NCBI GenBank assembly: GCA_945889475.1
Contig: CAMDBT010000007.1
Span: 1 to 64,000, forward strand
From: Bifidobacterium breve
Lineage (GTDB): Bacteria; Actinomycetota; Thermoleophilia; Solirubrobacterales; Solirubrobacteraceae
Direction: 5' to 3'
DNA length: 64,000 bases
A program made the translations under genes and the position numbers. Every line of letters begins with the position of its first letter. Within the stretch, counting starts at the first letter, position 1. The notes below the pieces were generated by a model. That model had not been told where the DNA came from and searched no databases. It was given only the letters and a program-made list of their open reading frames with translations. Positions 22,028 to 43,127 of this stretch are shown here, piece after piece.

Positions 22028-23017
22028 CTACGACTGTTCGCTGATCTGCGCGCAGATCAGATCGATCAGAGCCGCTTTAGGCAGCTCGCTCTTGAAGCCA
22101 GCGGCGGCCGGGTGACCACCACCACCGCCAGCGCGGGCGATCTTCGAGACGTCGATCACGCCGTCGCTGGAGCGCATCGAGATGCGGTAGCTCTCGCCGT
22201 TCTCGTCGCTCGTCTCGCGCAGCAGTGCCGCAACTTGCGTGCCGTCTACGGCGCGCAGGAAGTCAACTATCCCTTCGGTGTAGCTGGCAGGGGCGCCGCA
22301 CTCGTCGAAGTCTTTGCTACTCAGGACCGACACCGTCAGGCGTCGATCCAGGTGGCGCTCGGCGGCGCTAAGCGCGCGGGCGAAGAGGTGTAGCTTCGCT
22401 TCGGGCAAGTTCTCATATACGCGCCGAAAGATCAGGTTGCCGTCGATCCCCGCGGCCAGCAGCTCGGCGGCCATGGCGTGCGACCTAGCGGTGGCGTTTG
22501 GGTACATAAACCGGCCTGTGTCGGTGATCAAGCCGAGGTAGAGCGCCTCCGCGATCTCGGCCGTTAGCTCGACGCCAAGGCCATGCGCTAGGTCCCAGAC
22601 GATCTCGGCCGTCGAGGATGCATCCTCAACGACATAGTCGATGCTGCCAAAGCGCGTGTTGTCGTGATGGTGGTCGATGTTCAGCAGCTGTTCTGGCGCC
22701 GCTACCTCGTCGGCCAGCGCGCTTCGCTCGGTGTTGCCGCAGTCAAGGAGGACGACGACGCGGAGGTCCACGTCGGCGGGGAGTTCAGAGACGACCTCAC
22801 TGATGTCGAGCCAGTGGTACTCGTATGAGAGCGGAAGGTCGTCGGCAGCGATGAGGGTGACGACATCTTTGCCAAGTGATCGCAAAACCAGCGACATCGC
22901 GAGCAGCGAGCCGAGTGCGTCGCCGTCAGGGTTCTCGTGCGTAGCAAGCAGGAAGCGCTGCCCTTCGCTCAGTGCACCGATCGTCTGTTCGCGGCTTTGG
23001 GTAGCGGTCGGATTCAT
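22028..23017 (-). CDS. nrnA: DHH-family oligoribonuclease/pAp phosphatase NrnA
   Basis: The 329-residue phosphoesterase has the DHH-domain motifs HENPDGDALGS near residue 27, LLDCGNTER and IDHHHDN, plus the C-terminal DHHA1 domain with RAGGGGGHPAAAGF. It hydrolyses nano-RNA and 3'-phosphoadenosine 5'-phosphate. Gram-positive genomes usually carry it between rbfA and truB, as here. The ATG overlaps the rbfA stop by four bases. Confidence 0.92.
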   Translation of the reverse strand: MNPTATQSREQTIGALSEGQRFLLATHENPDGDALGSLLAMSLVLRSLGKDVVTLIAADDLPLSYEYHWLDISEVVSELPADVDLRVVVLLDCGNTERSALADEVAAPEQLLNIDHHHDNTRFGSIDYVVEDASSTAEIVWDLAHGLGVELTAEIAEALYLGLITDTGRFMYPNATARSHAMAAELLAAGIDGNLIFRRVYENLPEAKLHLFARALSAAERHLDRRLTVSVLSSKDFDECGAPASYTEGIVDFLRAVDGTQVAALLRETSDENGESYRISMRSSDGVIDVSKIARAGGGGGHPAAAGFKSELPKAALIDLICAQISEQS

Positions 23018-23376
23018 TCGGCGTCGCCCTCTCGGTGCGAATCTACTCGTTCGAGGATCTCTTCGAGGCGCGCGGCCGTCGCCGGGGTCGTGTCGAGCAC
23101 GAACTGAACGGTCGGCGTCCGCTTCATCCGAAGCTGGCTGGCCAACGCTTTCTGGACCCGCCCGTGCGCGGCGTTGAGCGCCTCAAGGCACTGCTCCGGC
23201 CCGGAAGGCGAGTCGAAAACGCTGACGTGGATCCGTGCGCTGCTGAGATCAGGTGTCGTCTGCACATCGGTGACGGTAACGAAGCCTACGCGCGGATCCT
23301 TGATCTGCTTTGTGATCGTGTCAGCCGCGACCTCCCTGATCGCTTCGTCTACCCGTCTCATCCGCGAAGAGGCCAT
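23014..23376 (-). CDS. rbfA: 30S ribosome-binding factor A
   Basis: The 120-residue KH-fold protein assists late 16S maturation and cold adaptation. It has the family opening RMRRVDEAIREVAADTI and the DPRVGFVTVTDV segment. It follows infB by 34 bases and is coupled to nrnA by a four-base overlap. Confidence 0.95.
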   Translation of the reverse strand: MASSRMRRVDEAIREVAADTITKQIKDPRVGFVTVTDVQTTPDLSSARIHVSVFDSPSGPEQCLEALNAAHGRVQKALASQLRMKRTPTVQFVLDTTPATAARLEEILERVDSHREGDAE

Positions 23377-23410: not shown

Positions 23411-25990
23411 TCAGCTCAGCTTGCGTTCCACCTTGCGCGTCGTGTAGGCCTCAAGAACGTCGCCCTCTTTGACGTCCTGGAAGTTGGCGAGCACAACGCC
23501 ACATTCGAAACCTTCGGCAACCTCTTTGGCGTCGTCGTTGAAGCGTTTGAGCGAATCGATCGTCGTCGCGTAGACAACCGTGCCGTCGCGCACCACGCGG
23601 ACGTGAGCATTGCGAACCAGCTTCCCGGCAGTCACCTGGCAGCCAGCGATCGTGCCAACCTTCGATGCCTTGAAGGTCTGGCGCACTTCGGCGCTACCGA
23701 GAGCGTCCTCGACCTCTTCCGGCTCGAGCATCCCTGTCATTGCGTCGCGCAACTCTTCGAGCGCTTTGTAGATCACCGAGTAGCTGCGGATCTCGACTCC
23801 TTCACGGTCCGCGGCGCCGCGCGCGTCACCGACCGGACGGACGTTGAAACCGAGGATAATGGCGTCGGAAGCCGCTGCCAGCATCACGTCGGACTCGTTG
23901 ATTCCACCGACGCCGCGATGGATGATGTTGACCGAAATCTCATCTTGCGGCAGCTTCGCGATCTCGTCCTCGAACGCTTCCAGAGAGCCCGAAACATCGG
24001 CCTTGAGGACAAGATTTAGATCCTTCAGCACGCCCTGCTGGATCCCGCTGAAGAGATCCTCGAACGAAACCTTGCGGCCGGAGCGACGTGCCGCCGCTTC
24101 GTTGCGCAGTCTCGTCTGGCGTTCTTCCGCCTGCTGACGCGCGATCTTCTCGTTCTTTGTTACGCGCAGGACCTCGCCAGCGTCCGGCACTCCGTCGAAG
24201 CCGAGCAGCTCAACCGGATCGCCGGGAAAGGCCGAGTCGCGCACGGCGCCGGTGTGGTCGTGCAGCGCACGCGCTTTGCCCCAGTGGCCGCCGGCGACAA
24301 AGGCATCGCCGACGTTGAGCGTGCCGCGCTGAATCAGAACCGTCACCACAGGGCCACGGCCAGGGTCAAGCTTCGATTCGACGACGATGCCGCTTGCCTC
24401 GGCGTCCGCGTTGGCCTTCAGATCCTCAAGCTCGGCGACGACAAGCAGCGTTTCGAGGAGCTCGTCGAGTCCGGCGCCGGACTTGGCTGAAACGTCCACG
24501 TACTCGGTCTCCCCACCCCACTCGGCCGGCTGCAACTTGCGCTCGGTCATCTCGGTACGGACGCGGGTCGGATCGGCACCCTCTTTGTCAACCTTGTTGA
24601 CGGCAACGACGATCGGGACGCCGGCAGCTCGCGCGTGGTCGATTGCCTCATCGGTCTGCGGCTTGGGTCCGTCGTCGGCGGCGACAACGATCACGGCAAT
24701 ATCGGTCACTTGGGCACCGCGGGCGCGCATCGCCGTAAAGGCCTCGTGGCCGGGGGTGTCAAGGAAGGTGATCAGACGACCGTCGTGGCGAACCTGATAG
24801 GCGCCGATGTGCTGCGTTATCCCCCCGGCCTCTCCAGCGACAACCTCGGTCTTGCGGATCGCGTCGAGCAGCGAGGTCTTGCCGTGGTCGACGTGACCCA
24901 TGATCGTGACCACCGGTGGCCGCTCAGTGAGATCGGCCTCCTCGTCGGCGAAGGTCAGCTCTTCGACCTCTTCGTCGGCGGTCGTGACAATCTCGACCTC
25001 CTTACCGAGAGCTTCGGCAAGGATCACGATCGCCTCATCGGACAACGTTTGCGTCAGCGTTGCCATCTCACCCATCAGCATCAGTTGCTTGATCAGATCG
25101 GGAACCGGCACGCCGAGGTACTCGGCGACGTCCTTGACCGTCGCTCCGCTGTTGACGCGAACCGCGTCGGTTGCGCTTTGAGCACTGGTATCTAGCGGTT
25201 CGAGCGGCGTGTCATCGAACTTGCGGCGGCCGCGTCGGCGCGGACGGCGCTGCGGGAATCCGCCTGGAGGTGGCCCTCCCCCGGGGCGACGGTTGGCCTG
25301 CGTATCGATCACAACGCGGCGCTTGCCTCCGGGCTCGGCTGGGCTGGCGGGCTTGCGCGGCGCACGCTTCGGCTTGTCGGGCTGCGCGATGACCTTCGGT
25401 CCGACCGGTGCAGCAGCGGCGATCTCGTCGGTTGGGGCCGACGGCTTCGCCTCAGCCGCGAGGTCCGGCGCCTTCTCGTCGCCTGTTGGCGCGACTCTCT
25501 CAGCTTCTGCTGGCGGCGTCGGCTCCGCTGGCGGCTCGCTGGCGGGGGCCTTCGGCCTCGGCGGCGGCTGCGCTTGGACTTTGGGCCTTGGCGCCGGCGG
25601 CAGTGCTGGCTCGCGCTTAGCGGAGCTCTTGGAAGGCTTGATCGGTGCTACGACATCGGGCTCAAAGACACGGCTACCGGTTGTGTCGACGGCCTCTCCT
25701 GGATCAAAGCTCCGTTGCTGGGTCGGTGCTGGAGCAGCGGGCGCCTGCGCTGCGGCCCTCGGCGCCGGCTTTTGGCGCAGCGCGGCAGGTGTCCGTGGCT
25801 TCGTTGGCGACTTCGCTTGGCGCTCGGTCGGGCTGTCTCCGGCAGATTTGAGAATCCGTAGCGCCTCATCCTCGTCGACACTCGACGCCGCCGCGGTTAC
25901 CTCTAGGCCGGCAGCGCGGAGCGTCTCCAGCAGCTCGCGGCTGGACAGGTTCTGCGCCTTCGCGATCTCATGGACGCGCTTATTGGCCAC
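23411..25990 (-). CDS. infB: Translation initiation factor IF-2
   Basis: The 859-residue GTPase brings initiator tRNA to the 30S subunit. An N-terminal IF2_N helix (VHEIAKAQNLSSRELLE) is followed by a long Pro/Ala/Lys-rich linker and an arginine-rich stretch (RRPRRRGRRKFDD), a second IF2_N domain, then the G domain with GHVDHGKTS, DTPGHEAF and NKVD, and domains II-IV. The GTG at 25990 overlaps the nusA stop by 11 bases, so the two are coupled without the ylxR gene that often separates them. Confidence 0.97.
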   Translation of the reverse strand: MANKRVHEIAKAQNLSSRELLETLRAAGLEVTAAASSVDEDEALRILKSAGDSPTERQAKSPTKPRTPAALRQKPAPRAAAQAPAAPAPTQQRSFDPGEAVDTTGSRVFEPDVVAPIKPSKSSAKREPALPPAPRPKVQAQPPPRPKAPASEPPAEPTPPAEAERVAPTGDEKAPDLAAEAKPSAPTDEIAAAAPVGPKVIAQPDKPKRAPRKPASPAEPGGKRRVVIDTQANRRPGGGPPPGGFPQRRPRRRGRRKFDDTPLEPLDTSAQSATDAVRVNSGATVKDVAEYLGVPVPDLIKQLMLMGEMATLTQTLSDEAIVILAEALGKEVEIVTTADEEVEELTFADEEADLTERPPVVTIMGHVDHGKTSLLDAIRKTEVVAGEAGGITQHIGAYQVRHDGRLITFLDTPGHEAFTAMRARGAQVTDIAVIVVAADDGPKPQTDEAIDHARAAGVPIVVAVNKVDKEGADPTRVRTEMTERKLQPAEWGGETEYVDVSAKSGAGLDELLETLLVVAELEDLKANADAEASGIVVESKLDPGRGPVVTVLIQRGTLNVGDAFVAGGHWGKARALHDHTGAVRDSAFPGDPVELLGFDGVPDAGEVLRVTKNEKIARQQAEERQTRLRNEAAARRSGRKVSFEDLFSGIQQGVLKDLNLVLKADVSGSLEAFEDEIAKLPQDEISVNIIHRGVGGINESDVMLAAASDAIILGFNVRPVGDARGAADREGVEIRSYSVIYKALEELRDAMTGMLEPEEVEDALGSAEVRQTFKASKVGTIAGCQVTAGKLVRNAHVRVVRDGTVVYATTIDSLKRFNDDAKEVAEGFECGVVLANFQDVKEGDVLEAYTTRKVERKLS

Positions 25991-27701
25991 TTGCCTCGTC
26001 TTCCAGCTCGGCCTTGGCGGCCTCGTCCTCAGTCTCCTCGGCCTCGGCTAGCTCCTGATCGGCCTCCGTGTCGGCAGCCTCTTCCTCAGCCTCGATCGTC
26101 GCTTCTTCTGCCTCTTCAGCAGCTTCCTCGACCTCTGCAGCAGCCTCCTCGACCTCTTCAGCAGCCTCCTCGACCTCTCCAGCAGCCTCCTCGACGGCGA
26201 CCGCGGCCGAACCGTCGGCCGCAATCTCGGTTTCGTCATCCCCGGCTAGCGCGGCGGCGGCCGCGTCTGCTTCAGCTTGAGCGGCAGCGGCATCTGCCTC
26301 GGCTTGGGCCGCGGCGGCGGCGGCCGCTTGGGCCTCAGCGACGACCGTCTCGATTTCGCCGACCCGGGCGGCCAACTCGGCGGCCGGCACTTCGGGGTCT
26401 GCGAATCGGACGATCTCCTCTTCGCTCAGCTCTGCTGCGAAGGCAACCGAGTTACCGCTGAAGCGGCCGAGCGCGATGTGTGTCGGAAGGCCGCAGGATG
26501 TGGTTCCTGGCAGCGCAGCATTTGGGCAACGGCGTCCGTTCGTGAGCACTGCGACGCAGCGACCACCGACCTCCTCATCGGCCGAGGTCGACCCTTCGGG
26601 AGCTTCGGTCGCAAACTCGGATTCGGAACAGATGTCGATCCGCCAGCCGGTCAGGCGAGCAGCAAGGCGCGCATTCTGGCCTTCACGGCCGATTGCGAGC
26701 GCAAGTTGGTCGTCAGGCACGATCACCGTCGCCTGCCGGGCCTCATCGTCAACGACGACCTCACGCACGCGCGCCGGCGAGAGTGCCTTGGCGACAAAGC
26801 GCGCCGGCTCTTCGTTGTAAGGAATGATGTCGATCTTCTCGCCACGCAGCTCGGAGACCACCATCCGCACGCGTGAACCGCGCGGGCCGACGCAGGCGCC
26901 CACTGGGTCGACGCCGTCGGCATACGAGACGACAGCGATCTTGGAGCGATAGCCGGGCTCGCGCGCAACGTTGGCGATTTCTACGAGACCGTCGGCCATC
27001 TCTGGCACTTCGAGTTCGAACAGAGCCTTGATCAGCTCGGGGTCGCGGCGGCTGAGGATGATCGAAGGGCCTTTGGTGTCTGCTGAAACCTCTTTGATCA
27101 CGGCCTTGACGCGCTGACCGTGGTCGTAGCGCTCGCCGTCAACCTGTTCGGAGCGTGGGAGCAGCGCTTCGATCCGTCCACCGACGCCAAGCTGCACAAG
27201 CGTGTAGCGCGAATCTGACTGCTGCACGATGCCGTTGACCAGTTCACCGACGCGATCCTGGTATTCGTTGAACATCATGTCTCGCTCGGCTTCACGAACG
27301 CGCTGGAGGATCACCTGCTTGGCGGTCTGCGCAGCGATCCGACCAAAGTCGTCCGGCGTTACGTCGGCCTCTTCGATCTGGTCACGGTAGATCGCGAACT
27401 TCTCAGGATCGATCTCAGGCTCGGCTGGCTCAACGTACTCGCCTGTCTCCGGGTCAAGGTAGGTCTCCTCGTCGATCGCTTCGACGATTAGCTGGGCCTC
27501 AAGTCGCTCTGGGATCTTCAGCTCGATCACGCGGTAGTCGCCGGTCTCCGGATCGAGCTGAACCCGTGCGTATTTGACCGACGTTGGTTGCTTCATGTAG
27601 GCGGAAAGGAGCGCATCCTCGAGCGCCGTGATCAGCCGTTCGGGGCTGATCCCCTTCTCATTTGCGAGCACTGTCATTGCTTCGATGATCTCTGTAGTCA
27701 T
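25980..27701 (-). CDS. nusA: Transcription termination/antitermination protein NusA with Cys/His cluster and heptad-repeat tail
   Basis: The 573-residue NusA has the N-terminal RNAP-binding domain, S1 (VGELVNGIVQQSDSRYTLVQ), and KH1/KH2 (GACVGPRGSRVR; LAIGREGQNARLAARLTGW). After KH2 comes an unusual extension: a Cys/His cluster from Cys382 (C-x9-C-x10-C-x4-H; codons 26478-26558) resembling a small zinc-binding motif, an alanine-rich stretch, and about 90 acidic residues in heptads (EEAAEEV) encoded by 21-base tandem repeats. ATG 27701 begins MTTEIIEAM; the frame to 27764 overlaps rimP. The core is certain; the tail's role is unknown. It binds RNA polymerase to control pausing and antitermination. 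Confidence 0.95.
   Translation of the reverse strand: MTTEIIEAMTVLANEKGISPERLITALEDALLSAYMKQPTSVKYARVQLDPETGDYRVIELKIPERLEAQLIVEAIDEETYLDPETGEYVEPAEPEIDPEKFAIYRDQIEEADVTPDDFGRIAAQTAKQVILQRVREAERDMMFNEYQDRVGELVNGIVQQSDSRYTLVQLGVGGRIEALLPRSEQVDGERYDHGQRVKAVIKEVSADTKGPSIILSRRDPELIKALFELEVPEMADGLVEIANVAREPGYRSKIAVVSYADGVDPVGACVGPRGSRVRMVVSELRGEKIDIIPYNEEPARFVAKALSPARVREVVVDDEARQATVIVPDDQLALAIGREGQNARLAARLTGWRIDICSESEFATEAPEGSTSADEEVGGRCVAVLTNGRRCPNAALPGTTSCGLPTHIALGRFSGNSVAFAAELSEEEIVRFADPEVPAAELAARVGEIETVVAEAQAAAAAAAQAEADAAAAQAEADAAAAALAGDDETEIAADGSAAVAVEEAAGEVEEAAEEVEEAAAEVEEAAEEAEEATIEAEEEAADTEADQELAEAEETEDEAAKAELEDEASGQ
26118..26201. repeat. 21-base tandem repeats in the nusA tail (four units)
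   Basis: Four consecutive 21-base units (26118-26138, 26139-26159, 26160-26180, 26181-26201) start with AGCAGC and read mostly CCTCCTCGACCTC. Units 2 and 3 differ at only one position; unit 4 diverges after CTCGAC. Each unit encodes one heptad of the acidic NusA tail (EEAAxEV), so the array is coding and its copy number sets the length of a helical segment. Such arrays can expand or contract by slippage. Confidence 0.85.
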
Positions 27702-27705
27702 CTCG

Positions 27706-28128
27706 TTACTCCTCGACCAGGTTGGATCGCTTAATCGCCGTGTAGGGAATCGCGACCAGCGCATCGCCGGCCGAAATCGTTACCTCTTCGTTTGACGCGC
27801 CGACAAGTTCGCCGGTGAAGCTGCGCTGCCCTGCGAGCGGTTCGATTGTGCGCACCTTTGCGCGGCGGCCGAGGAAGCGCTGATAGTGCTCGGGACGCGT
27901 TAGCGGCCGCTCGCGTCCAGGCGACGAAACCTCGATCCCAATCTTCTCGCGCACCAGTTCGAGATCGCCTGTGACGGCGGCGCAGAGATCGAGCGTCACC
28001 CCGTCGGGGTGGTCGATCACGACGCGAATCGTCCCGCTTCCGGCGCCCTCGACGGCAAGGACCTCCAGCGCGGGCTGGGTTTCAGCCAACTTGGCCTCGA
28101 TTTCGGCGTGGATTTGTGTCGTATTCAT
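27706..28128 (-). CDS. rimP: Ribosome maturation factor RimP
   Basis: The 140-residue protein helps 30S maturation. It has the RimP_N domain and the signature VSSPGRERPLTRPEHYQRFLG, followed by the small Sm-like C-terminal domain. It is first in the rimP-nusA-infB operon; nusA begins four bases after the stop. A promoter-like element and an intrinsic terminator precede it, suggesting attenuation of the whole operon. Confidence 0.95.
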   Translation of the reverse strand: MNTTQIHAEIEAKLAETQPALEVLAVEGAGSGTIRVVIDHPDGVTLDLCAAVTGDLELVREKIGIEVSSPGRERPLTRPEHYQRFLGRRAKVRTIEPLAGQRSFTGELVGASNEEVTISAGDALVAIPYTAIKRSNLVEE

Positions 28129-28147
28129 CTGAATGAGGGGATAAAAA

Positions 28148-28167
28148 AAGTGGGCTAGCGCCCACTT
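28148..28167 (-). terminator. Intrinsic terminator/attenuator in the rimP-nusA-infB leader
   Basis: On the minus strand a perfect 8-base-pair stem AAGTGGGC/GCCCACTT with a four-base loop is followed by seven T (28143-28149, overlapping the base of the stem). It lies 20 bases before the rimP start and downstream of a promoter-like element at 28216-28225. It could end coaBC transcription, but its place in the rimP leader fits a premature terminator. A leader sequence at 28185-28191 can pair with 28156-28162 and would disrupt the hairpin. Confidence 0.8.
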
Positions 28168-28215
28168 CCGTTGCTGCTGTGACCGGCGCTACCGGGCTTC
28201 GAAAGCTCGTCTAGA

Positions 28216-28225
28216 ACGATAGCAC
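28216..28225 (-). promoter_or_regulatory. Candidate extended -10 promoter for rimP-nusA-infB
   Basis: The minus strand reads GTGCTATCGT. TATCGT fits the TANNNT form of a primary-sigma -10, with an upstream TGC as an extended -10. The same decamer lies before the SAM riboswitch of the ThrC-like gene (43143-43152). No strong -35 is visible at 17 or 18 bases. A start near 28209 would give a leader of about 80 bases that includes the terminator. Confidence 0.45.
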
Positions 28226-28285: not shown

Positions 28286-28328
28286 GCCGCGTCGCGCTAG
28301 GCGCGGTGCCGCGTCGCGCTAGGCGCGG
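28286..28328. repeat. Two direct copies of a 21-base GC-rich palindromic unit downstream of coaBC
   Basis: Identical 21-base copies lie at 28286-28306 and 28308-28328, separated by one T. Each copy begins GCCGCG and ends CGCGG, so it can form a small hairpin. The pair starts 18 bases after the coaBC stop on the minus strand. It could stabilise the 3' end of the coaBC mRNA or be a REP-like element; there is no T-run, so it is not a standard terminator. Confidence 0.8.
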
Positions 28329-28346
28329 CTAATCATCGCGGGCGGG

Positions 28347-29597
28347 CTACGCGGTGCGAGCGCGCTCGGCGGTTAGCTCGTCAACAGCGTCGAGGATCTC
28401 CCCGGCGATCGCGAGCTTGTCAGCTCTTGGCAGGTGCCGATCTGCGCCGGCGCTAACAATCGTGACCTCGTTGGATCTGCTCTCGAAACCGATCTCAGCG
28501 TCGGAGACGTCGTTGACGACGAGTAGATCGAGACCTTTCGCGGCCAGCTTCGCGCGCGCCAATTCCAGTCCACCGGGGCCATGTTCAGCGGCGAAACCGA
28601 CAAGCATTTGCGCTTCAGTGCGTACCTTGGCGAGCTCTGCGAGCACGTCAGTGGTTGGCGTCAAAGTCAGCTCGAACTCCGTTCGGCCGTCCTTCTTAAG
28701 CTTGCCGGCTGCTGGCTCGGCGGCCGTAAAGTCCGCAACGGCGGCAGCCATCAGGAGCAGGTCGCAGCTGGGGAATTGCTCTCTAGCGGCCTGTTCGAGC
28801 TCTGCCGCGGTCTTGACGTCGAGATAGGCAACCTGAGCGTGGCGCGGCAGATCAACGTTGGCCGCAATCACCGTCACATCAGCCCCACGCGCGGCGGCAG
28901 CTTCGGCCAAGGCGAAGCCCATTCGTCCCGATGAGCGGTTGCCGACGAACCGAACCGCATCGATCGGCTCGCGCGTGCCGCCAGCGGTCACCAGCACGCG
29001 GCGACCATCCCAGGGGCGCTGGCCAGCCGGCACGATCTGTTCGATCGCAGCGAGAATCGCCTCTGGGCGGGCGAGCCTGCCGCTACCCCACTCGTTGCGG
29101 CTGGCAAGCGAGCCGACCTCGGGGTCCACAACCCTAATAGAGCGGCGACGGAGCAGCTCAACGTTGGCCTGTGTCGCTCCGTTTTGCCACATCTGGTGGT
29201 TCATCGCTGGCGCAAGGATCAGCGGGCACGATGCGGCCAACGCGGCGCTTGTCAGCAGATTGTCGGCCAGTCCGGAGGCCAGCTTGGCGATCGTGTTGGC
29301 GCTAGCCGGTGCGATCACGAAGACGTCGGCGTTGCGAACCAGCTCCAAGTGACTGATCGGATCGTGCTCCGGGGTTGGCTGGTCGGGGAAGGCGCCGCGG
29401 GCTGGATCTCGCTCCCACTCGCTAGTCAAGACCGGCCCGCCAGTGATCGCAGCGAACGACGCTGCGCCTACGAAACGCTGTGAGTTGACGGTTTGAATCA
29501 CCCGCAACGAATGGCCGGCGGCGCTTGCGAGACGTACTAGATCGAGCGCCTTATAGGCGGCGATCCCACCGGTGACACCGAGAAGAATTCGGGCCAT
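28347..29597 (-). CDS. coaBC: Bifunctional phosphopantothenoylcysteine decarboxylase/phosphopantothenate-cysteine ligase
   Basis: The 416-residue enzyme makes 4'-phosphopantetheine for coenzyme A. The CoaC domain has GVTGGIAAYKA, ISHLEL (catalytic His) and the PAMNHQMW motif; the CoaB domain has TAGGTREPID, NRSSGRMG and VNDVSD. The flavoprotein domain has an apparent insertion around residues 60-78 (ERDPARGAFPDQPTPEHD). It sits downstream of gmk and rpoZ, a conserved actinobacterial order. Confidence 0.95.
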   Translation of the reverse strand: MARILLGVTGGIAAYKALDLVRLASAAGHSLRVIQTVNSQRFVGAASFAAITGGPVLTSEWERDPARGAFPDQPTPEHDPISHLELVRNADVFVIAPASANTIAKLASGLADNLLTSAALAASCPLILAPAMNHQMWQNGATQANVELLRRRSIRVVDPEVGSLASRNEWGSGRLARPEAILAAIEQIVPAGQRPWDGRRVLVTAGGTREPIDAVRFVGNRSSGRMGFALAEAAAARGADVTVIAANVDLPRHAQVAYLDVKTAAELEQAAREQFPSCDLLLMAAAVADFTAAEPAAGKLKKDGRTEFELTLTPTTDVLAELAKVRTEAQMLVGFAAEHGPGGLELARAKLAAKGLDLLVVNDVSDAEIGFESRSNEVTIVSAGADRHLPRADKLAIAGEILDAVDELTAERARTA

Positions 29598-43038: not shown

Positions 43039-43127
43039 CACCACATCTGTCAGGAATTGGCACCTTCCCTTTCGGGAGGTTGCCGGGGTTTCAACGGGCC
43101 AGTCCCTCCACCCCTCTAGATGTGTCC
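43039..43127 (-). ncRNA. SAM-I (S-box) riboswitch
   Basis: The minus strand carries the full S-box core: P1 ACACATCT/AGATGTGG, then AGAGGGGTGGAGGGACTGG, CCCGTTGAAACCCCGGCAACC, a hairpin CTCCCGAAAGGGAAGG and GGTGCCAATTCCTGACAG. These blocks match the known consensus GGAGGGACTGGCCC, GCAACC and GGTGCNAATTCC. With SAM bound, P1 forms and the downstream terminator folds, turning off the ThrC-like/MoaD-like operon. Confidence 0.96.

What the first reader, a model, noticed from the sequence alone, without database searches (positions are those of the whole stretch)
28129..28225. Probable attenuator in the rimP-nusA-infB leader
A strong intrinsic terminator lies between a promoter-like GTGCTATCGT and the rimP start. 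A leader TAGCGCC (28185-28191) is perfectly complementary to the terminator's GGCGCTA (28156-28162), giving a mutually exclusive fold. Since NusA affects pausing and termination, the operon may regulate itself. Terminators before rimP-nusA are known in other phyla, as far as I recall.
Basis: partly seen in the sequence, partly recalled or inferred. Interest (0 to 1): 0.5.

Follow-up and report, generated by a model that had tools for sequence, protein, structure and literature searches.

The report
RNA switch before the nusA operon
A short RNA stretch at the start of an essential bacterial operon can fold either to stop transcription or to let it continue, probably so that the cell can tune how much of a key transcription factor it makes; the stop part is a known kind, the pairing that would undo it looks new.

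Summary
The hairpin is the terminator of the known 'rimP-leader' (Naville & Gautheret 2010, GGGc...gCCC stem), here in a Thermoleophilia (Solirubrobacterales) genome. A terminator lies before rimP in 89 of 93 upstream regions, mostly relatives, and its sequence is almost rimP-specific: 26 of 27 matches in 61 genomes. The gene upstream differs between relatives, so it is not simply a coaBC terminator. A different pairing is: a box right after the predicted start site (GCUUUCG, 28206-28200) pairs with the 5' foot of the terminator (CGGAAGU, 28170-28164). In 62 distinct leaders 380 of 434 cells pair, against 34-57% in slid registers and 0 of 5000 within-family permutations. Another order (CAUUUC:GAAAUG, 15 of 17) and a family of another class (ACUUUC:GAAAGU, box in 27 of 28) share the design. 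Naville & Gautheret saw no antiterminator in the general rimP-leader. NusA autoregulation is inferred from other bacteria.

The parts
28216..28224 (-). extended -10-like element TGCTATCGT (hexamer TATCGT 28221-28216)
   Evidence: sequence; joint motif search over 92 leaders gives T 0.97, A 0.98 and last T 0.98 at the core positions; promoter activity inferred
28208..28210 (-). predicted transcription start (about 7 nt after the -10 hexamer)
   Evidence: inference from the -10 position; not mapped
28200..28206 (-). 5' box GCUUUCG = 5' strand of antiterminator helix P1
28183..28195 (-).
   Evidence: fold; variable among relatives
28164..28170 (-). CGGAAGU = 3' strand of P1, overlapping the 5' foot of the terminator stem
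28146..28169 (-). intrinsic terminator hairpin (rimP-leader type GUGGGC-GCUA-GCCCAC core, 10 bp)
28143..28149 (-). U-tract of the terminator
27706..28128 (-). rimP
   Evidence: Pfam PF17384 and PF02576
25980..27764 (-). nusA (longest ORF; likely true start near 27701)
   Evidence: Pfam NusA_N, S1, KH_5
23411..25990 (-). infB
   Evidence: Pfam IF2_N, GTP_EFTU, IF-2
23014..23376 (-). rbfA
   Evidence: Pfam RBFA

Best explanation
This is the transcription attenuator of the rimP-nusA-infB-rbfA operon. A promoter just upstream starts a leader RNA whose first nucleotides form a box (GCUUUCG). As the RNA grows, the box first pairs with CGGAAGU, forming helix P1 around a small hairpin; P1 holds the lower 5' arm of the terminator. 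When the 3' arm GCCCACUUU emerges it can displace the box by branch migration and complete the more stable terminator, ending transcription before rimP. Readthrough therefore depends on a race. NusA, which stimulates hairpin-dependent pausing and termination in other bacteria, would tip it towards termination when abundant, closing a negative feedback loop. Shown here by sequence: terminator, box, the complementarity and its conservation. Predicted: relative stabilities and folding order. Inferred: start site, actual termination, and NusA as the signal.
For: Terminator in 89 of 93 upstream regions, three of the other four having weaker forms by eye. Terminator stem pairs in 99.3% of cells with 19 double-changed cells, 0 of 500 shuffles. 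Pattern GTGGGCN{3,8}GCCCRCTTTT: 27 matches in 61 genomes, 26 of them rimP leaders, exactly one in the window's genome. P1, anchored by sequence only: 380 of 434 cells in 62 distinct leaders, slid registers 34-57%, 0 of 5000 within-family permutations (f1 11, f2 54, f3 954 of 5000 taken alone). On a RimP tree of 80: 42 pair breaks against 65 +/- 4 when foot strands are permuted (0 of 200), 7 same-branch compensatory changes against 0-3 in slid registers. Clearest case: two genomes of one genus, GCUUUCG:CGAAAGU (G056) and GCUUCUU:AAGAAGU (G040), three adjacent compensated pairs. Version in another order, CAUUUC:GAAAUG, in 15 of 17; in a family of another class, ACUUUC:GAAAGU, box in 27 of 28. 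Before the 3' arm is made the minimum-energy fold holds P1 in 51 of 70 leaders against 36 of 700 with shuffled box; the terminator state is then more stable by a median 5.2 kcal/mol. NusA-stimulated attenuation of its own operon in B. subtilis (PMC12288461, passage); short and long leader RNAs in S. agalactiae (PMC4448216, passage).
Against: No RNA or protein data for this organism. Compensatory counts alone are modest: 17 of 200 permutations reach the 7 events on the tree, and in the MAFFT alignment of f1 the covariation score is ordinary (144 of 500 shuffles) because the box hardly varies. In f26 both strands are nearly invariant, so permutation shows no excess (2503 of 5000). 12 of 92 leaders (all of f4, Patulibacter and others) were left out of the P1 count because the motif search found no trustworthy box or they lie outside f1-f3, and no equivalent was evident by eye in f5, f6, f7, f38 and f40, although the terminator is there. 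Only 58 of 80 leaders have six or more contiguous P1 pairs. P1 leaves the GGGC/GCCC core of the terminator free, so how far it blocks termination is a prediction. S. agalactiae terminates 31 nt after its start site, leaving little room for such a switch: P1 is not needed for NusA feedback in general.
Confidence: 0.65

Rival explanations
1. Plain rimP-leader: the terminator alone, stimulated by NusA, does the work. The 5' box is conserved as initial transcribed sequence or promoter-proximal element, and its complementarity to the terminator foot is incidental.
For: The terminator occurs without an evident box in other orders and outside the phylum; the box follows the -10 at a fairly fixed spacing (8-10 nt in 46 of 49 f1 leaders); box strand nearly invariant within f1 and f26.
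Against: Register-specific pairing, permutation result, three-pair compensation within one genus, and the CAUUUC:GAAAUG and ACUUUC:GAAAGU versions elsewhere are not expected.
Confidence: 0.22
2. The box is a protein-binding (nut/boxA-like) site for Nus factors rather than an RNA pairing partner.
For: NusA operon; short conserved motif at the 5' end.
Against: 16S leaders of 10 relatives were read: several hold a different stretch of the type CUUUGAAAACUCAACAGC, and none has GCUUUC (that this is boxA-like is recalled). The box changes together with its pairing partner. The comparison covers one candidate site only.
Confidence: 0.06
3. The hairpin only terminates transcription of the upstream gene coaBC.
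For: coaBC lies upstream on the same strand in the window.
Against: The upstream neighbour is a TPR protein in congener G007 and in G019, Dtd in G080 and coaBC in G071, yet -10 box and terminator persist. Only a few neighbours were identified by Pfam.
Confidence: 0.04
4. One reading: TAGCGCC (28191-28185) pairs with GGCGCTA (28162-28156).
For: Perfect 7 bp in the window and in 7 of 9 congeners, the window's own included; exceeds letter shuffles on percentage paired (0 of 500) and covariation score (2 of 500).
Against: 177 of 2000 by chance; broken in 2 of 9 congeners; 51.8% paired overall, about equal to a slid register at 51.0%.
Confidence: 0.03

Closest known systems
rimP-leader, Naville & Gautheret 2010 (PMC2965389, section 7 read)
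   Same: Position before rimP-nusA-infB, GGGc...gCCC terminator stem with U-tract, motif nearly absent from other terminators, NusA proposed as regulator.
   Different: That report found no visible antiterminator in the general form; here a conserved box pairs with the terminator foot. The complex gammaproteobacterial form there has a second, upstream terminator with its own antiterminator.
B. subtilis NusA autoregulation by attenuation (PMC12288461, one passage seen; the primary paper was not seen)
   Same: NusA-stimulated intrinsic termination in the leader of its own operon.
   Different: NusA dependence not tested here; whether that leader has a P1-like pairing was not examined.
S. agalactiae rimP-nusA leader (PMC4448216, passages seen)
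   Same: Terminator in the leader of the same operon, short and long RNAs from one start site.
   Different: Termination 31 nt after the start site, too short for box plus hairpin plus terminator as seen here.
Rfam RF01770 rimP
   Same: Same gene context, by its name.
   Different: No match in G000, G024 or G061, only E 2.8-9.8 in G045 and G077, none over the cut-off.

Membership tests
rimP-leader (Naville & Gautheret 2010) | terminator in the leader of rimP-nusA-infB | tested here: met
rimP-leader (Naville & Gautheret 2010) | GGGc...gCCC stem motif | tested here: met
   GUGGGC-GCUA-GCCCAC in the window; GYGGG..CCCRC plus T-rich tail in 88 of 93
rimP-leader (Naville & Gautheret 2010) | motif specific to this leader | tested here: met
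   26 of 27 pattern matches in 61 genomes lie before rimP
rimP-leader (Naville & Gautheret 2010) | no visible antiterminator (descriptive, general form) | tested here: not met
   P1; this makes it a variant rather than excluding it
Rfam RF01770 (rimP) | match to the covariance model over the gathering score | tested here: not met
NusA-autoregulated attenuator | termination stimulated by NusA in vivo or in vitro | not testable with these tools
   needs bench work
two-state attenuator | mutually exclusive terminator and antiterminator helices conserved by sequence | tested here: met
   the register tested for P1 uses the seven bases before GGG, which are also the terminator foot; mutual exclusion is of the lower stem only
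two-state attenuator | signal that shifts the balance | not tested
   NusA inferred

The most novel reading that the evidence does not exclude
In a large part of the phylum Actinomycetota the rimP-leader is a kinetic RNA switch: the first nucleotides of the nusA-operon mRNA copy the terminator's own 3' arm (CUUUC-type) and hold its foot until displaced, so readthrough reports RNA polymerase speed and pausing, and hence NusA activity, without any dedicated ligand. P1 would be the antiterminator missing from the 2010 description.
Probability: 0.4. Interest if true: 0.6.

Novelty: new variant of a known kind. Interest (0 to 1): 0.45.

Why it matters
The rimP-leader was called the most ubiquitous bacterial attenuator, and how its terminator is switched has been open because no alternative fold was seen. 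A conserved, compensating alternative pairing in two orders of one class and in a family of another class gives exact bases to mutate. It would turn 'NusA probably regulates itself here' into a test of how a general termination factor reads its own leader.

Tried and rejected
Single-sequence complementarity of P1 is not significant by itself in GC-rich leaders: 12 of 92 leaders reach p of 0.1 or less, median p 0.42; only position and conservation make the case. The first box search mistook the -10 for the box in several leaders and was replaced by a joint search. In one search the minus-strand loci among L001-L030 were read in the wrong orientation; one search corrected this. In one search the 'P1 forbidden' energies are wrong because the constraint also blocked other pairs; one search replaces them. 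Covariance model R1 found no second strong locus in relatives other than a second rimP copy in G018; weak class hits were not used. Rfam: no match at gathering score here, only chance matches at E up to 5, RF01770 not matched. boxA idea not supported. No leader peptide was evident by eye in the three frames of the leader. PMC13236596 passages were irrelevant. In-print checks for an antiterminator of the general rimP-leader: searches showed none beyond PMC2965389's gammaproteobacterial form; of what they listed I opened five papers, and subscription papers are mostly not held.

The 93, 63 and 60 leader sets overlap slightly (for example L042/L230, L043/L229, G114 and G163). Loci L031-L038 were not used: they repeat contigs of the G genomes. 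Dropped from P1 counts: 12 of 92 (three f1 with low motif score, all five f4, four unplaced). Left out of the alignments: five more by name, and identical sequences. Of 30 f26 loci, one (L314) was dropped before because its match did not look like a start of rimP with an upstream region, and one (L295) had no anchor.

Full report
What is there. On the minus strand, a 218-nt gap lies between coaBC (stop at 28347) and rimP (ATG 28128), followed by nusA, infB and rbfA. The genome is an 82% complete, 1.65-Mb assembly; its nearest named relatives are uncultured Solirubrobacterales (Thermoleophilia) genomes.

Conservation of the terminator. Of 101 genomes (own plus 100 relatives) 88 have rimP. I read 93 upstream regions: those of these 88 genomes and of five other Thermoleophilia records. 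A strict script finds a terminator in 89 of 93; L015, L055 and L080 have weaker ones by eye; L042 has none. The stem pairs in 99.3% of cells in 45 relatives of the own family, with changes on both sides in four pairs. Further out, the script finds a terminator in 59 of 60 rimP leaders of the class, all from families outside the own order. In a phylum-wide sample 35 of 63 leaders carry the GYGGG..CCCRC form with a T-rich tail (the looser script finds some hairpin in 49 of 63, including unrelated ones such as GCCCCTC/GAGGGGC). The same kind of stem precedes rimP by eye in one record each labelled Paenalcaligenes, Acidobacteria and Acidimicrobiales. In 61 genomes the pattern GTGGGCN{3,8}GCCCRCTTTT has 27 matches, 26 of them before rimP. 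This is the published rimP-leader (PMC2965389, section 7 read).

Not a coaBC terminator. A few upstream neighbours were identified by Pfam: coaBC in the window and G071, TPR proteins in G007 (same genus) and G019, Dtd in G080. A -10-like box (GCTANNNT) upstream of the terminator is conserved across families, so the leader very likely has its own promoter. No start site has been mapped.

TAGCGCC:GGCGCTA is identical in 7 of 9 congeners (the window's own included) and broken by C to A in two without compensation. Seven or more base pairs occur in 177 of 2000 shuffled leaders. In 45 relatives it pairs in 51.8% of cells against 37-51% in slid registers; it does exceed letter shuffles on percentage paired and covariation score. 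I read this as the GC-rich P2 hairpin varying next to an almost fixed terminator, not as a switch.

The conserved alternative fold, P1. Searching for a motif downstream of the -10, by sequence only, gives a box AGCUUUCG. In a fixed register it pairs with the seven bases before GGG of the terminator. In 62 distinct leaders of families f1-f3 (80 of 92 leaders used; 12 dropped, listed) 380 of 434 cells pair. Slid registers give 34-57%; none of 5000 permutations of foot strands within families reaches the observed value. By family: f1 11, f2 54 and f3 954 of 5000, so f3 alone is not significant. On a RimP tree there are 42 breaks against 65 +/- 4 permuted (0 of 200) and 7 same-branch compensations against 0-3 slid, but 17 of 200 permutations reach 7. 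In the MAFFT alignment of f1 the main P1 helix pairs in 98.4% of cells; the covariation score of the structure is no better than shuffles because it hardly varies. The most telling case is within one genus: GCUUUCG:CGAAAGU in G056, GCUUCUU:AAGAAGU in G040, three adjacent pairs changed on both sides. f39, of another order, has CAUUUC:GAAAUG in 15 of 17 leaders, 93 of 105 cells against 44-54% slid. f26, of another class, has ACUUUC:GAAAGU: box in 27 of 28, 143 of 161 cells in 23 distinct leaders against 46-58% slid, but no permutation excess since both strands are nearly invariant. No such box was evident by eye in f5, f6, f7, f38 or f40.

How it would work. P1 ties up the foot of the terminator stem. 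Folding predictions give P1 in the nascent RNA before the 3' arm exists in 51 of 70 leaders, against 36 of 700 with a shuffled box; the finished terminator is more stable by a median 5.2 kcal/mol. In the window: -21.9 for the P1 state, -24.6 for the terminator state. The box resembles the 3' arm plus U-tract that will displace it (GCUUU against ACUUU). I infer a race between elongation and branch migration, with NusA pushing towards termination. NusA-stimulated attenuation of its own operon is stated for B. subtilis (PMC12288461, one passage); short and long leader RNAs are reported for S. agalactiae (PMC4448216, passages); E. coli has two terminators before rimP and NusA control (PMC6511841, passages). 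For this organism none of this is shown.

Novelty. Terminator and NusA idea: known. What I did not find in print is P1: searches showed nothing on it apart from the 2010 paper, which reports no visible antiterminator in the general form and a different one in gammaproteobacteria. RF01770 does not match. I therefore file it as a new variant of the rimP-leader, not a new kind of system. Confidence by step, my judgement: attenuator 0.9, P1 a real helix 0.8, NusA the signal 0.6.

Noticed in passing
window 43040-43126 (-): SAM (S-box) riboswitch, 79.9 bits.
   Followed up: no
window 28290-28330: Tandem repeat GTCGCGCTAGGCGCGG x2 with hairpin potential between coaBC and the rimP promoter; possibly the real coaBC 3' end.
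   Followed up: no
window 28129-28142: No Shine-Dalgarno-like sequence by eye between the terminator U-tract and the rimP ATG in this genus, whereas many relatives have GGAGG there.
   Followed up: no
L031: Record titled Bifidobacterium breve encodes a RimP 92% identical to this Solirubrobacterales one; probably a mislabelled metagenome bin.
   Followed up: no
G018:C52:16347-16840: Second rimP copy with two in-frame TGA codons and its own R1-matching leader, E 1.2e-11.
   Followed up: no
L113, L116, L120, L121, L123, L130: Six genomes of one family (f8) have an inverse-sense hairpin GCCCCTC/GAGGGGC-type before rimP instead of GUGGGC.
   Followed up: no
f6 leaders, e.g. L241, L243, L262: Different conserved motif AAACTGCGAGGT right after the -10 with no evident pairing to the terminator foot.
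   Followed up: no
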